Assembly (NCBI GenBank): GCA_021203465.1
Contig: JAJQBC010000078.1
Location: 1-42,124, forward strand
Direction of reading: 5' to 3'
DNA: 42,124 nt
DNA from: Lachnospiraceae bacterium
GTDB taxonomy: Bacteria; Bacillota; Clostridia; Lachnospirales; Lachnospiraceae
Both the position numbers and the translations under genes were made by a program. Positions 16,763-42,102 of this stretch are shown piece by piece. The notes below the pieces were generated by a model. It worked only from the letters and a program-made list of their open reading frames with translations. It searched no databases and had not been told where the DNA came from. Each line of letters starts with the position of its first letter. Position 1 is the first letter of the stretch.

Positions 16763-16835
16763 TGCATCTCCAGGGGTTCGAACCCTGGACACCCTGATTA
16801 AGAGTCAGGTGCTCTGCCAGCTGAGCTAGAGATGC
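16763..16835 (-). tRNA. tRNA-Lys (anticodon CTT)
   Basis: The minus strand folds as a complete 73-base tRNA: a seven-pair acceptor stem GCATCTC/GAGATGC with discriminator A, a D arm, an anticodon stem CCTGA/TCAGG with loop CTCTTAA (anticodon CTT, codon AAG), and a T arm CAGGG-TTCGAAC-CCCTG. The 3' CCA is not encoded. The gene stands alone. Confidence 0.95.
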
Positions 16836-34358: not shown

Positions 34359-34507
34359 TCTCTTATTCAGAGCGGTGGAGATACATAGGATCTGTGAAAC
34401 CCGGCAACCCCTGCATGCAGGAAGGTGCTAACCTGAGCGAGTAATCGAACAATAAGAGAACCTGAGACATGTTATCAGGTTCGCTTATCACGCGGACCTT
34501 TCTTTAT
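34359..34507 (+). promoter_or_regulatory. SAM-I riboswitch with terminator, upstream of metK
   Basis: The S-box aptamer is clear: P1 arms TTCTCTTATT/AATAAGAGAA (34359-34368, 34451-34460), the core AGAGCGGTGGAG, GAAACCCGGCAACC, and GGTGCTAACCTG. The expression platform holds a terminator stem GGTTCGC/GCGGACC (34478-34484, 34492-34498) with a T-rich tail, and a competing antiterminator GAACCTGA/TCAGGTTC (34458-34465, 34475-34482) that uses the end of P1. SAM binding should therefore stabilise P1, free the terminator and lower metK expression. Confidence 0.96.
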
Positions 34508-35747: not shown

Positions 35748-35776
35748 TTGATTTCCTTTGGCTGTCTGATTATACT
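35748..35776 (+). promoter_or_regulatory. Promoter of the Shango-like operon
   Basis: TTGATT (35748-35753) and TATACT (35771-35776) are 17 bases apart in the 97-base gap after metK, about 45 bases before the first defence gene. I see no terminator after metK, so some read-through is possible. Confidence 0.65.
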
Positions 35777-35820: not shown

Positions 35821-37323
35821 ATGAAATGGGTAGAAAATCAGGAATATTATTATGAGGATGAGCCCATTCGCCTCACAGCGGAGCGAGCCGGAAGCCTCCC
35901 GCCAAAGGAATACCGGAAAATGTGGGAGCTGGCTTTTGGCTCGCCATTTTCCCGCAACAACGACGCCAAAATATTCTATCTGCAGGCCCGCTATATGGAG
36001 CATTTTGAGGACGACTGTCCCTATGAGCGGGAAGTGCTGCACTATTTCCCCACCTACCAGAGCCTTTCCATGGCGGAGCTCCGCGGGTATTTTACCTGGC
36101 GGACCAGGCTGCGCCATGGGAAGCTGGAAAAAACATCACTGTCCTATGCCTACCTCTACATTTACGAGCTCCTGCATCAGATCGGATCGGAGACGAAGGA
36201 AGAGGGACTGGAAGCACTGCTGTGGTTTTATGAGCAGTACGGCGAGCTCGATCCGGGCATCCGGCACTATACCGAACGATGGATTGCGGATTATGCCATT
36301 TACTATGATCTGCCGGCAGAGCTGGTCAAGGACTATGTAAACGCGGACTTCGACGCGGCGCTGGTCGCCCTCCGCGACTGTGATACGGTCGACGATGAAA
36401 CGCTGTTTCCAGCTATCATGCGGCTTTCTTCCTATCATCTGGAGAGGTCAAAAGCCTTTAAGAAATATCCGGAAGAGCTTTCGCAAGTGCTCTGCGGGGC
36501 ATACCGCAGGCTGAACGCCCGCTATGCCGGACGCTATGGACGCCCCTATTCACAGAAACTTTTCGGAAATCCGGCGAGAGTGCCCTATACTCCCTTTCGC
36601 TCAGCGGTATTCTTTGGACACGAGCGGCATGCGCATTATGAGTACCGCGTCAGCCCCGTGCAGTGCTACCTCTGCGAGCGAAATCGCTGGAGCCTGGAAC
36701 GGGGCTATTTCTCCTCGCAGCGCGACCGGACGCTGGGCGTCTTCGTTCGGGCTGCCGACCGCCTCGTGCGGGAAGCATACGGTGTGAAGCCGCCCCTGAA
36801 GGTCGGCACGGAAACCAAAACCATGATACGGTTTATTTCCGAGGCCATTGAGGAGCAGAAAAAAAACGCTGCGCCTAAGGTAGAATTTGATCTCAGCAAG
36901 CTGTCGGGCATCCGCAGAAGCTCGGACGCTGTCGGACAGAGGCTTATGACAGAAGAGGAACGCTATGTGGAGGCGGAGCCGCCCACGCTACAAGCCCAGA
37001 ATGATGCTGCATCCAGCTCGTCAAAAGCACAGGTTCAAGCAGAACCCGCATCCGGCCAGCCCGGTATGCAAGCGCAGGAAGGCTCAGCATCTCTCACCTG
37101 CATCCTCTCAGGAAACGAGCTGCGCTTTGCCCAAATTCTCCTGTATGGCGGAGACCTGCAAGAATTTCTGCTCGAAAACCACCTGATGGCTTCCGTTCTG
37201 GCGGAGGCGGTCAATGAGCAGCTGTACGATGAATTTGCCGATACCGTGATCGAATTCGACGGCAATACTCCCGTTCTCGTGGAAGATTACCGGGACGATC
37301 TGAAAGGAATGATACCAAGTTGA
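35821..37323 (+). CDS. sngA: TerB-domain protein, Shango SngA-like
   Basis: The 500-residue protein has a TerB N-terminal domain (about residues 35-230; MWELAFGSPFSRNNDAKIFYLQARYMEHFEDD), a middle part with a CYLCERNRW pair, a low-complexity Gln/Ala/Ser linker (about 390-420) and a TerB C-terminal domain (LLENHLMASVLAEAVNEQLYDEFADTVIEFDG). TerB-family domains take part in stress and phage-defence systems. The ATG at 35821 has GGAG upstream; an earlier in-frame TTG (35776) overlaps the promoter. The stop overlaps the next gene's TTG start. With the ATPase and helicase that follow, this matches the known Shango anti-phage system. Confidence 0.85.
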   Translation: MKWVENQEYYYEDEPIRLTAERAGSLPPKEYRKMWELAFGSPFSRNNDAKIFYLQARYMEHFEDDCPYEREVLHYFPTYQSLSMAELRGYFTWRTRLRHGKLEKTSLSYAYLYIYELLHQIGSETKEEGLEALLWFYEQYGELDPGIRHYTERWIADYAIYYDLPAELVKDYVNADFDAALVALRDCDTVDDETLFPAIMRLSSYHLERSKAFKKYPEELSQVLCGAYRRLNARYAGRYGRPYSQKLFGNPARVPYTPFRSAVFFGHERHAHYEYRVSPVQCYLCERNRWSLERGYFSSQRDRTLGVFVRAADRLVREAYGVKPPLKVGTETKTMIRFISEAIEEQKKNAAPKVEFDLSKLSGIRRSSDAVGQRLMTEEERYVEAEPPTLQAQNDAASSSSKAQVQAEPASGQPGMQAQEGSASLTCILSGNELRFAQILLYGGDLQEFLLENHLMASVLAEAVNEQLYDEFADTVIEFDGNTPVLVEDYRDDLKGMIPS

Positions 37324-38642
37324 AGATCCCTAAGAGAATTGCGAATACCCTGATCAACGCCCTGAAGGGCGGCGTCGTGCCGCGCATCGGCCTGCCCTAC
37401 ATTACAGTCGGGCGCGAGCAGGAGATCAATGCGCTGCTGCGCGATGTAGAGATCATCGCCGACGGCGGAGCCTCTTTCCGCTTCATTTCCGGAAAATACG
37501 GCAGCGGCAAGAGTTTTCTGCTGCAGACGATCCGAAATTATGTGATGGACAAAAATTTCGTAGTGGTGGACGCCGATCTCTCCCCGGAACGCCGCCTGCA
37601 GGGAACGAAAGGGCAGGGGCTTGCCACCTACCGCGAGCTGATCCAGAATATGTCCACGAAGACCCGGCCGGAAGGCGGTGCGCTGCCGCTGGTGCTGGAT
37701 AAGTGGATCAGCGGCGTGCAGAGTTCAGTGGCGATGGAGACCGGACTGGATTTCTCATCGGAAGAATTTACCCGGCTGGTGCAGCAGAAGATTTTCGCGG
37801 TCATTAACGATCTGAACGGCCTCGTACACGGCTTCGACTTCGCGCGGCTCCTGACGCTCTATTATCAGGCCTTTCTGGACGGCGACGAAGAAACGAAGGC
37901 CAAGGTCGTCCGCTGGTTCCGCGGCGAGTACGCGACGAAGACCGAGGCGAAGCAGGAGCTGGGCGTGAATGTGATCATCACCGACGACGACTGGTATGAG
38001 TATATTAAAATTTTTGCCGCCTTCCTGAAAAACGCGGGCTATGCCGGGATGCTGGTGCTGATCGACGAGCTGGTGAATATCTACAAGATCCCCAACTCCA
38101 TCACCCGGCAATACAACTATGAGAAAATTCTGACGATGTACAACGATACCCTACAGGGTAAGGCGAAATACTTCGGCATCATCATGTGCGGCACGCCGCA
38201 GTGCATCGAGGACACCCGCAGAGGCATCTACAGCTACGAAGCCCTGCGCTCCCGGCTGACCGAGGGGCGTTTTTCCAGCGGGAATACCCGCGATATGCTG
38301 GCGCCAATCATCAAGCTCTCCCCGCTGACCAATGAGGAAATGCTGATCCTTGTGGAAAAGCTGGCGGATATTCACGCGCAGCTCTTCGGCTATGAGCAGC
38401 GCCTCACGCAGGACGATCTCATATGCTTTATCCAGATCGAGTACAGCCGCGTGGGGACAAACTCCCACATCACGCCGCGGGAGATTATCCGGGATTTCAT
38501 TGAGCTGCTGGACATTCTGTATCAGAATCCAAAACTGAAGGTAGCGGAGCTCATGAATTCCGAAAGCTTCTCCTATGCGAAAACGCCGCTGGAAGAGCAG
38601 GCGGCGGACGCGCTCGGAGAGTACGCGGAGTTTACATTGTAA
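37320..38642 (+). CDS. sngB: BrxD-like P-loop ATPase, Shango SngB-like
   Basis: The 440-residue ATPase is of the BREX BrxD/DUF2791 type. GGVVPRIGLPYITVGREQEI near residue 17 and ADLSPERRLQGTKGQGLATY near 85 are hallmark segments. Walker A is GKYGSGKS (58-65), Walker B MLVLIDELVNI near 245, and an Arg-rich sensor region CGTPQCIEDTRRG follows. It starts with TTG in a TTGA overlap with the TerB gene, so translation is coupled. BrxD proteins also occur in type 2 BREX, but no pglX, pglZ or brxC is here. Its likely role is to sense or load onto DNA together with the helicase. Confidence 0.87.
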   Translation: MKIPKRIANTLINALKGGVVPRIGLPYITVGREQEINALLRDVEIIADGGASFRFISGKYGSGKSFLLQTIRNYVMDKNFVVVDADLSPERRLQGTKGQGLATYRELIQNMSTKTRPEGGALPLVLDKWISGVQSSVAMETGLDFSSEEFTRLVQQKIFAVINDLNGLVHGFDFARLLTLYYQAFLDGDEETKAKVVRWFRGEYATKTEAKQELGVNVIITDDDWYEYIKIFAAFLKNAGYAGMLVLIDELVNIYKIPNSITRQYNYEKILTMYNDTLQGKAKYFGIIMCGTPQCIEDTRRGIYSYEALRSRLTEGRFSSGNTRDMLAPIIKLSPLTNEEMLILVEKLADIHAQLFGYEQRLTQDDLICFIQIEYSRVGTNSHITPREIIRDFIELLDILYQNPKLKVAELMNSESFSYAKTPLEEQAADALGEYAEFTL

Positions 38643-38657
38643 GGAGGCTATACGCGC

Positions 38658-40931
38658 ATGAATACCTTTGACCGCTATGCGCCCTTCATACAGGATTATA
38701 TTTACCAGAACGGCTGGGAAAATCTGCGGGCGGTGCAGGCCGCCGCGGCGGATGTCATTTTCAATACCGATGAAAATCTGTTGTTGACGGCCTCCACCGC
38801 ATCAGGAAAGACGGAGGCAGCCTTTTTCCCCATCCTTACTTTATTTACAGAGGAGATGCCCTCCTCCGTGGGCGCGATCTACATCGGGCCGCTGAAAGCC
38901 CTGATCAACGACCAGTTTGGACGGCTGAACGATCTCTGTCAGGAGGCGCATATTCCGGTGTGGCACTGGCACGGAGATGTGTCGGCGTCCCACAAAAATA
39001 AGATGATGAAGCATCCCTCCGGCATCCTGCAGATCACGCCGGAGAGTCTGGAGGCCATGCTGCTGCGCAGGCATTCCGCCATCGGGAAGCTCTTCGGCGA
39101 CCTGCGCTTTATCGTGATCGATGAACTGCACTCTCTCATGCGCGGCGACCGCGGCGGCCAGACGCTGTGCCTGATCGAGCGGCTCTGCCGCCTGGCGGAT
39201 GTGAACCCCCGGCGCATCGGTCTCTCGGCAACCATTGGCGACCCGGAAGACGCCTGTGAATTTCTCTCTGCCGGGACGGGACGCCGAACCATCGTCCCGA
39301 AACTGCCGCAGGGCAGCGTCAGGTGGCGGCTCTCCATGGAGCATTTCTATACTTTTCCTCCGACGAACCCCGGAGCCCCGACGAAAATCCACAATCAACC
39401 GGCGGAGGCAATGCTGCCGATAGACGATGCGCTCGCGCCAAAGACGGACACCGCCCCGAAAGAGGCGGACCCCGGCATCGGCTATATCTTTGAACACACC
39501 AGAGGCAAGAAATGTCTGGTCTTCGTCAACTCCAGAGAGGAATGCGAGGCGGTCACGACAACGCTGCGGCAGTACTGCGAGGCAAAACATGAACCGGACC
39601 GCTTCCTGATTCATCACGGAAATCTGTCGGAATCCTACCGCAAGACAGCGGAGACGGTGATGAAGGACGAAGAACAGTTTCAGACAACGGTAACAACCGC
39701 CACGCTCGAGCTTGGCATCGACATCGGCAGGCTGGAACGGGCTTTCCAGATCGACGCGCCCTTCACCGTCTCGGCTTTCCTGCAGCGTCTGGGACGCACC
39801 GGACGGCGCGAACTGCCTCCGGAGATGTGGTTCGTCATGCAGGAAGAACCGCCGGAGGCGCGGTCTCTATTGCCTGTCACGATCCCGTGGAAGCTCATTC
39901 AGGGCATCGCGCTGGTACAGCTCTATCTCGAGGAACGCTGGGTAGAACCGCCGAGGCTGGACGCCTTGCCCTACAGCCTTCTGTACCACCAGACTATGAG
40001 CACGCTGGCCTCCTGCGGAGAGATGACTCCGGCCCAGCTCGCCGCCCGCGTCCTGTCGCTTCGCTATTTTCAGCGCGTATCGCAGGAGGATTTCCGGATA
40101 CTGCTGCGCCATCTGCTGGAGACGGATCATATCCAGCAGACGGAGGGCGGCGGCCTGATCGTGGGCCTGGCCGGGGAGCGCGTGATTAACAATTACAAAT
40201 TCTACGCGGTATTTCAGGAGAATGAAGAATACACAGTCCGCGCCGGTTCCGAGGAACTGGGCACTGTGGTGAAGCCGCCGCCCGCCGGGGAGAAGCTCGC
40301 CATCGCCGGTCATGTCTGGCTCGTGGACGAGGTCGATCACAAGCGGCATATGGTCTACTGTGAGATAATCAAGGGGAAAGTTCCCGCCTACTTCGGAGAG
40401 GTCGCAGGCGACATTCACACCCACATTCTGGAGCGAATGCTGGGCGTGCTCTGCGAGGAGAAATCCTATCCGTACCTGATGAAAAACGCTGTGGTGAGGC
40501 TGAAGACCGCCCGCACTTCCGCGGAAAATGCAGGCCTGAAGGACAAAAACCTGATCTGCCTCGGCGGAAATATGTACTGCCTCTTCCCCTGGCTGGGGAC
40601 CTACGCTTTCCTTGCTCTGGAACGTTTTCTGAAAATCAAGTGCGGCAAACGTCTGGGCATCAAGGGACTGGATTCCTCAAGACCTTACTTTATGCAGTTC
40701 GTCATGTCTGTTTCCGAGCGGGAATTCTGGGAAATTCTGACGGAAGAACTGAAAAAGCCCATCGAGCCGATGAGCCTTGTCTATCCCCGCGAGGTGCCGA
40801 TCTTCGATAAATACGACGAATACCTGCCGGAATCTCTGGTGAAAAAAGGATTCGCCTGTGGAGTGCTGGATATTGAGGGAATGAAAGAAAAGATGCTGCA
40901 ATTGTGTGAAAGGGCGCTTGCAGGTACATAA
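38658..40931 (+). CDS. sngC: Lhr-like DEAD/DEAH helicase, Shango SngC-like
   Basis: The 757-residue superfamily 2 helicase resembles Lhr and BrxHI. Motif I is TASTASGKTEAA (Lys51), motif II DELH near 157, motif III LSATIGDPE near 195, motif V TATLELGIDIGR near 350 and motif VI QRLGRTGRR near 377. An Lhr-type C-terminal region follows. The gene starts 15 bases after the ATPase gene with a GTAAGGAGG site. All helicase motifs look intact, so the operon is probably functional. It is followed by a hairpin and then by proB in the opposite direction. Confidence 0.88.
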   Translation: MNTFDRYAPFIQDYIYQNGWENLRAVQAAAADVIFNTDENLLLTASTASGKTEAAFFPILTLFTEEMPSSVGAIYIGPLKALINDQFGRLNDLCQEAHIPVWHWHGDVSASHKNKMMKHPSGILQITPESLEAMLLRRHSAIGKLFGDLRFIVIDELHSLMRGDRGGQTLCLIERLCRLADVNPRRIGLSATIGDPEDACEFLSAGTGRRTIVPKLPQGSVRWRLSMEHFYTFPPTNPGAPTKIHNQPAEAMLPIDDALAPKTDTAPKEADPGIGYIFEHTRGKKCLVFVNSREECEAVTTTLRQYCEAKHEPDRFLIHHGNLSESYRKTAETVMKDEEQFQTTVTTATLELGIDIGRLERAFQIDAPFTVSAFLQRLGRTGRRELPPEMWFVMQEEPPEARSLLPVTIPWKLIQGIALVQLYLEERWVEPPRLDALPYSLLYHQTMSTLASCGEMTPAQLAARVLSLRYFQRVSQEDFRILLRHLLETDHIQQTEGGGLIVGLAGERVINNYKFYAVFQENEEYTVRAGSEELGTVVKPPPAGEKLAIAGHVWLVDEVDHKRHMVYCEIIKGKVPAYFGEVAGDIHTHILERMLGVLCEEKSYPYLMKNAVVRLKTARTSAENAGLKDKNLICLGGNMYCLFPWLGTYAFLALERFLKIKCGKRLGIKGLDSSRPYFMQFVMSVSEREFWEILTEELKKPIEPMSLVYPREVPIFDKYDEYLPESLVKKGFACGVLDIEGMKEKMLQLCERALAGT

Positions 40932-41922: not shown

Positions 41923-42102
41923 TTACTCTTCTGAAAAATAATCAGAATCTAATTTCTTAACCTTATAAACATATTCAGCTGAAACGCCCAATTCATACTC
42001 AATCATCAATTCCGAAAGTCTTTTACCATCGATCAGAACAATCTTATAATTCAAATTTTTATTAACGAATTCTTCGGTCGATTGTAAAATGAAGTTGAAC
42101 AC
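41923..42102 (-). pseudogene. C-terminal remnant of an Mrr-type restriction endonuclease
   Basis: Read on the minus strand, 59 codons encode YKIVLIDGKRLSELMIEYEL followed by GVSAEYVYKVKKLDSDYF and a stop. This matches the C-terminal end of Mrr-family restriction proteins, which cut modified foreign DNA. Just upstream (42103-42105) is an in-frame TAG, and the residues before YKIVLIDG look scrambled compared with the family, so the gene seems disrupted here; its catalytic domain would lie beyond the window. The stretch is much more AT-rich than its neighbours. The 41880-42124 part holds nothing else that I can recognise. Confidence 0.7.

What the first reader, a model, noticed from the sequence alone, without database searches (positions are those of the whole stretch)
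35821..40931. Complete Shango-type anti-phage operon between metK and proB
Seen: three coupled genes in the order TerB-domain protein, BrxD-like P-loop ATPase and Lhr-like helicase, with intact Walker A, DELH and motif VI residues, their own promoter and tight overlaps. Established: this gene content and order is that of Shango, a defence system described in Pseudomonas and other bacteria. Inference: this is a clostridial version with an unusual Gln/Ala/Ser linker in the TerB protein. Mechanism and trigger in this lineage are, as far as I know, not described.
Basis: partly seen in the sequence, partly recalled or inferred. Interest (0 to 1): 0.8.

Follow-up and report, generated by a model that had tools for sequence, protein, structure and literature searches.

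The report
Ordinary Shango anti-phage operon, clostridial
The three genes look like a complete copy of Shango, a bacterial anti-phage system known from Pseudomonas and E. coli and found in many relatives of this bacterium; what stands out is that its first gene changes much faster than the other two.

Summary
Confirmed and largely ordinary. Window 35821-40931 (+) holds three intact genes whose best PADLOC families are SngA (4.8e-66), SngB (637 bits; BrxD 156) and SngC (924 bits; BrxHI 409). No BREX PglZ was found in the genome. Catalytic motifs are invariant or nearly so in the relatives aligned. Of 397 family genomes searched, this one included, 47 match SngB, 41 strongly. The metK neighbour means little: in four of six relatives read, metK is followed by a murA-like gene, and this genome has the reciprocal junctions metK/Shango and murA/bioB, most simply an inversion. 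The Gln/Ala/Ser linker is modelled as disordered and is length-variable (24-95 residues) in 64 aligned relatives. sngB and sngC diverge synonymously like neighbouring genes; sngA is the fast part, with dN 3.6-4.8 times that of sngB or sngC against the three close species compared. Best mechanism (inferred): SngA senses or adapts, SngB is an ATP switch, SngC an Lhr-type DNA motor; no nuclease family was recognised. A divergent Shango-like operon occurs in sister species.

The parts
35748..35776 (+). sigma-70-like promoter TTGATT-17-TATACT of the operon
   Evidence: same hexamers and spacing in 5 of 5 relatives read
35821..37323 (+). sngA: TerB_N (aa 47-234), middle region with short strands, linker modelled as disordered (about aa 380-424), TerB_C (aa 341-495) whose end (aa 431-497) is modelled as helices plus a hairpin
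   Evidence: PADLOC SngA 4.8e-66; Pfam TerB_N, TerB_C; AlphaFold model mean pLDDT 85.8
37320..38642 (+). sngB: BrxC/BrxD-type P-loop ATPase
   Evidence: PADLOC SngB 3.5e-192; Pfam BrxC_BrxD 2.7e-170
38658..40931 (+). sngC: Lhr-like SF2 helicase
   Evidence: PADLOC SngC 1.5e-278; closest solved structure M. smegmatis Lhr 5V9X by sequence profile and by fold

Best explanation
A complete, selectively maintained Shango operon (shown by sequence; near certain). How it works is inferred, and the confidence given is for the mechanism. SngC is an Lhr-type helicase (that Lhr is a 3'-5' ssDNA translocase is recalled) and SngB a P-loop ATPase of the BrxC/BrxD family. Together they form the conserved motor and switch, which is loaded on invading or replicating phage DNA. 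SngA is the fast-evolving sensor or adaptor: its TerB_N part and middle region recognise the trigger, and its acidic, possibly winged-helix-like TerB_C end, tethered by a disordered linker, docks on SngB or SngC. As no nuclease family was recognised in the three proteins, defence is likely by remodelling or stalling phage DNA (or by signalling arrest) rather than by cutting.
For: Identity. Conserved trio: of 80 named loci found with SngB, SngA is detected in 79 (the miss, L161, begins at a contig edge) and SngC in 75 (the 5 misses end 92-1662 nt after sngB); in 73 of the 74 loci with all three the order is A-B-C. No fourth gene: the commonest neighbour clusters occur in 15 of 80 loci. Motor: invariant motifs; Lhr as top solved match. 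SngA as variable part: mean column identity 34% against 78% (SngB) and 70% (SngC); dN 0.087-0.110 in three close species against 0.018-0.024 for sngB and sngC. The end of the SngA model has three helices, two strands and a helix; LysR-type winged-helix proteins are the first and many later weak Foldseek hits; the consensus of the last 72 residues is acidic (16 D/E, 4 K/R), which fits protein docking better than DNA binding. Published activity: 10-100-fold drop in plating for many phages, smaller or less clear plaques for several, protection in liquid (PMC10250203, passages).
Against: No functional data for this copy. The SngA fold hits all have E above 1, and the output does not say which part of SngA they align to; placing them at the C-terminus is my inference from the secondary structure. 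Fast SngA change could reflect relaxed constraint or recombination with diverged alleles: its dS is raised too, 0.70-0.97 against 0.46-0.54. sngA is interrupted by an in-frame stop in G002 and split between frames in G008, so it is not whole in all near relatives' assemblies. The SngC model is of moderate confidence (pLDDT 71.7). No solved relative of SngB (E 0.01) was found by sequence, and for SngA only one hit at E 0.81.
Confidence: 0.4

Rival explanations
1. The genes are BREX parts (BrxD, BrxHI) separated from, or belonging to, a BREX locus.
For: SngB and SngC are homologous to BrxD (156 bits) and BrxHI (409 bits).
Against: Shango models score 637 and 924 bits; NCBIfam BrxD cut-off 350 not reached (154.9); no PglZ in the genome; SngA is found with SngB in 79 of 80 related loci.
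Confidence: 0.02
2. The operon is Shango by descent but has become a fixed housekeeping or genome-maintenance unit in this clade.
For: Canonical sngB is found in all 6 genomes of the close clade (metK 94.7-97% identical to this one, plus this one) and in none of the other 11 of the genus, 4 of which are under 90% complete (G005, G010, G013, G015); dS of sngB and sngC lies within that of neighbouring genes; nine of 80 named loci, mostly titled Ruminococcus, share the same flanking genes.
Against: Patchy at family level (41 strong of 397); sngA diversifies fast and is interrupted in the G002 and G008 assemblies; neighbours differ between relatives.
Confidence: 0.1
3. Shango works by abortive infection: activation of SngA-SngB-SngC arrests or kills the host, without acting directly on phage DNA.
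For: Sensor-plus-ATPase architecture and lack of a recognised nuclease are compatible; the published plating reduction is modest (PMC10250203).
Against: [quoted passage not shown] no toxin family above its cut-off was found (a Zeta_toxin hit of SngB, 15.8 bits against 22.3, covers only the P-loop region).
Confidence: 0.3

Closest known systems
Shango (SngA-SngB-SngC), P. aeruginosa PA14 and E. coli
   Same: Three genes, same order (TerB-like, ATPase, DEAD/DEAH helicase) as described for PA14 (PMC10250203); all three PADLOC models match over most of their length.
   Different: Host: a Lachnospiraceae clade (its nearest named records, L098-L100, bear that title). SngA fits its model least well (222 bits). 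No direct alignment to the PA14 or E. coli proteins was made.
BREX BrxD and BrxHI
   Same: Homologous ATPase and helicase families.
   Different: Much lower scores; no PglZ found; a TerB protein is present.
Bacterial Lhr (M. smegmatis, 5V9X)
   Same: Top solved match of SngC by profile and by fold.
   Different: Fold overlap is partial (TM-score 0.57-0.58, rmsd 9.2, 18% identity); PMC12278908 (passage) places SngC with BrxHI, DruE and DpdJ in a potentially distinct clade.

Membership tests
Shango | sngA, sngB, sngC all present and matching the system models | tested here: met
   4.8e-66, 3.5e-192, 1.5e-278
Shango | order TerB protein, ATPase, helicase in one operon | tested here: met
   PA14 order from PMC10250203 (passage)
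Shango | intact ATPase and helicase motifs | tested here: met
   the motif names are recalled
Shango | anti-phage activity | not testable with these tools
   needs phage challenge
BREX | BrxD at equivalog level | tested here: not met
   154.9 bits, cut-off 350
BREX | PglZ in the genome | tested here: not met
   no match in G000 (98.47% complete); the search rang in 2 of 14 control genomes

The most novel reading that the evidence does not exclude
SngA is the diversifying recognition subunit of Shango: variants of SngA (TerB_N and middle region, on a disordered tether with a docking TerB_C end) exchange on a nearly constant SngB-SngC motor, so that SngA alone sets which phages are sensed.
Probability: 0.3. 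Interest if true: 0.55.

Novelty: new member of a known kind. Interest (0 to 1): 0.22.

Why it matters
It adds an intact copy to the many Shango operons of Lachnospiraceae. Two passages seen here class Shango's mechanism as unknown (tables in PMC10855318, and PMC12926258). The rate difference between SngA and SngB/SngC gives a simple test of which subunit sets specificity.

Tried and rejected
BREX was considered and rejected. Insertion of Shango behind metK as a mobile element was considered: of six relatives whose sequence after metK was read, four (G002, G006, G007, G009) have a murA-like gene there and two (G008, G014) have something else; this genome has that murA-like gene joined tail to tail to bioB-bioY on contig C5, the reciprocal junction expected of an inversion with breakpoints metK/murA and bioB/Shango. 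Insertion is not needed; a mis-assembly would have to make both junctions. Phage origin: no SngB match in 50,697 phage records. Plasmids hold 691 records with a match to SngB, all under 60% identity, which may include BrxD relatives; only one has a match to this SngA, which fits SngA divergence. A fourth conserved gene: none found in 80 loci, though small genes sit between sngB and sngC in some. The fold search for SngA gave nothing with E below 1. No SngB/BrxD tree was built and no PA14 or E. coli protein was aligned; the model scores were taken as sufficient. (42-locus survey) looked at one strand only, so many loci came back empty; it is not used here.

Rows left out: SngA alignment A1 used 63 of 80 loci plus the window (single closed ORFs of 470-600 aa); SngC alignment A3 63 of 80 plus the window; SngB alignment A4 75 of the 77 loci that qualified of 80, plus the window (I left out L154 and L158). 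One search used 11 chosen close loci of the 80. The 80 are not independent: L098, L099 and L100 have the contig lengths of G009, G002 and G006, and L154 and L158 come from one assembly.

Full report
Observation. The window holds three same-strand genes at 35821-40931: a TerB-domain protein, a P-loop ATPase and an SF2 helicase. sngA and sngB overlap by 4 nt; sngB and sngC are 15 nt apart. A promoter-like site lies at 35748-35776. The same hexamers with a 17-nt spacer stand before the operon in 5 of 5 relatives read, none of which has metK upstream. In G009 and G002 only 6 nt lie between the -10 hexamer and the sngA ATG, against 44 here and in G006 and G007.

Identity. PADLOC assigns SngA, SngB and SngC as best families with wide margins over BrxD and BrxHI. 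Pfam finds TerB_N, TerB_C, BrxC_BrxD, DEAD and Helicase_C, plus a ResIII match in SngC that overlaps its helicase domain. NCBIfam's BrxD equivalog is matched only at 154.9 bits against a cut-off of 350; SngA matched nothing in that library. The genome has one SngB match and no PglZ match.

Distribution. In the genus, 10 of 17 genomes match the SngB model. Six carry the canonical form (G000, G002, G006, G007, G008, G009); these are this genome and the five whose metK is 94.7-97% identical. Their operons are not all whole in the assemblies: sngA has an in-frame stop in G002 and is split between frames in G008, sngB of G007 contains unread bases, and the G008 operon lies on two contigs. Four carry a divergent form (G003, G004, G015, G016), in G015 only in part at a contig end. 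Of 397 family genomes (drawn from a larger group, this one included) 47 match, 41 with E below 1e-100 and six only weakly. In a scan of named genomes 300 stretches encoded SngB relatives and the best 80 were kept; their titles are mainly Lachnospiraceae, Ruminococcus, Oscillospiraceae and unplaced Clostridia, with single records from Lactobacillus, Synergistaceae, a deltaproteobacterium and an acidobacterium. SngA was detected in 79 and SngC in 75 of the 80; 73 of the 74 with all three have the order A-B-C, and L130 has A-C-B. sngA is in pieces in two (L099, L152) and sngC in two (L112, L148). Several loci have extra small genes between sngB and sngC.

Location. Among the relatives read, metK is next to Shango only in this genome. 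After metK, four of six (G002, G006, G007, G009) have a murA-like gene; G008 and G014 have other sequence. The operon's upstream neighbour in relatives is bioY- or bioB-like (G006, G007, G008) or a MarR/ABC-like block (G009, G002). In this genome the murA-like and bioB-bioY-like genes are tail to tail on contig C5. The two junctions are most simply the reciprocal products of one inversion. The proB-like amino-acid kinase follows Shango in G000, G002, G008 and G009 but not in G006 or G007.

Selection. In pairs with G002, G006, G007, G008 and G009, dS of sngB and sngC (0.46-0.54) falls within the range of the neighbouring genes compared, metK, ileS-like, histidine-kinase-like and proB-like (0.35-0.66); the second and third of these were compared with G009 only. 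This fits vertical inheritance of sngB and sngC within the clade. sngA (G009, G006, G007) has dS 0.70-0.97 and dN 0.087-0.110, against dN 0.018-0.024 for sngB and sngC, a ratio of 3.6-4.8; the raised dS allows recombination as well as faster change. Across 11 close loci all three genes show dN/dS well below 1. Within sngA the region 377-428 is least conserved (mean top-residue frequency 0.33) and 429-500 most (0.62). The linker between two invariant leucines is 24-95 residues in 64 sequences, median 33; this copy has 53 with 70% Q/A/S/E/P/T against 49-68% in the 14 relatives printed, so it is at the high end but not of a different kind.

Structure and mechanism. The SngA model (mean pLDDT 85.8, pTM 0.64) has a long helical N-terminal part, a small region of strands, a low-confidence linker and an end of helices with a hairpin. 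Foldseek's best E is 1.4; its first hit and many later ones are LysR-type regulators over about 65-80 columns. The output does not give the range in SngA; I infer the C-terminal end from its secondary structure. The last 72 consensus residues are acidic, so I infer docking rather than DNA binding. SngC's best solved match is Lhr by profile and by fold (E 3.6e-21). The mechanism offered (SngA sensing, SngB switch, SngC DNA motor, no cutting) is inference at about 0.4; abortive infection is the main rival. The activity of Lhr and the general roles of such ATPases are recalled knowledge.

Literature. Seen as passages: PMC10250203, PMC12278908, PMC10952713, PMC12926258, PMC13356809, PMC13251782, PMC10855318. 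No listed title was a study of Shango's mechanism: 20 of 985 listed; 7 of 7; 36 of 36 holding Shango and phage; 10 of 10. Most subscription papers and bioRxiv's own holdings are not in that library.

Verdict. Known system, new member; of interest mainly for the SngA rate contrast and the divergent sister operon.

Noticed in passing
L085:6776-11929, L086:7040-12142, L087:7284-12504; partial in L095:3122-5826: Sister species G016, G003, G004 and (in part) G015 carry a divergent Shango-like operon. The G016 proteins, the only ones scanned, give SngB 413 bits, SngC 613 bits and SngA 53.9 bits, with no Pfam match for the first gene; profile comparison links the first genes to SngA over 129 columns (probability 98.3%). 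Possible Shango subtype.
   Followed up: partly
L085:13274-17686 with L182:1-2074; L183:5712-13001 with L087:1-453: In G016 and G004 that divergent operon lies near a JetC (Wadjet type III) gene: 2026 bits in G016, in G004 by resemblance only. Neighbouring ORFs look like further Jet genes (not scanned). G003 shows none in the stretch read.
   Followed up: partly
window 41923-42102 (-): C-terminal fragment resembling a type IV methyl-directed restriction enzyme at the contig end, beyond the proB-like gene (PADLOC mREase_IV 1.2e-10; no Pfam match).
   Followed up: partly
L117:8371-12766, L132:8360-9860, L137/L140/L144/L151:8314-8805, L172:4989-5336, L177:8283-8672: Small extra genes sit between sngB and sngC in several loci: NUDIX-like, P-loop kinase-like and ArsC-like by look; an ArsC-like gene also stands beside the proB-like gene next to Shango in G009 (L080:5519-5917).
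   Followed up: no
L081:5476-6951 and L084:5574-7099: sngA of G002 has an in-frame stop between its two TerB parts and sngA of G008 is split between frames; sequencing or assembly errors are possible.
   Followed up: partly
L080 about 11795, L081 about 6901: In G009 and G002 only 6 nt separate the operon's -10 hexamer from the sngA ATG, which suggests leaderless translation.
   Followed up: partly
window 34360-34458 (+) and 16763-16835 (-): SAM riboswitch upstream of metK and a tRNA gene (Rfam); both expected. Stretches about 90% identical to the region of the tRNA lie some kilobases from Shango in G006 and G007.
   Followed up: partly
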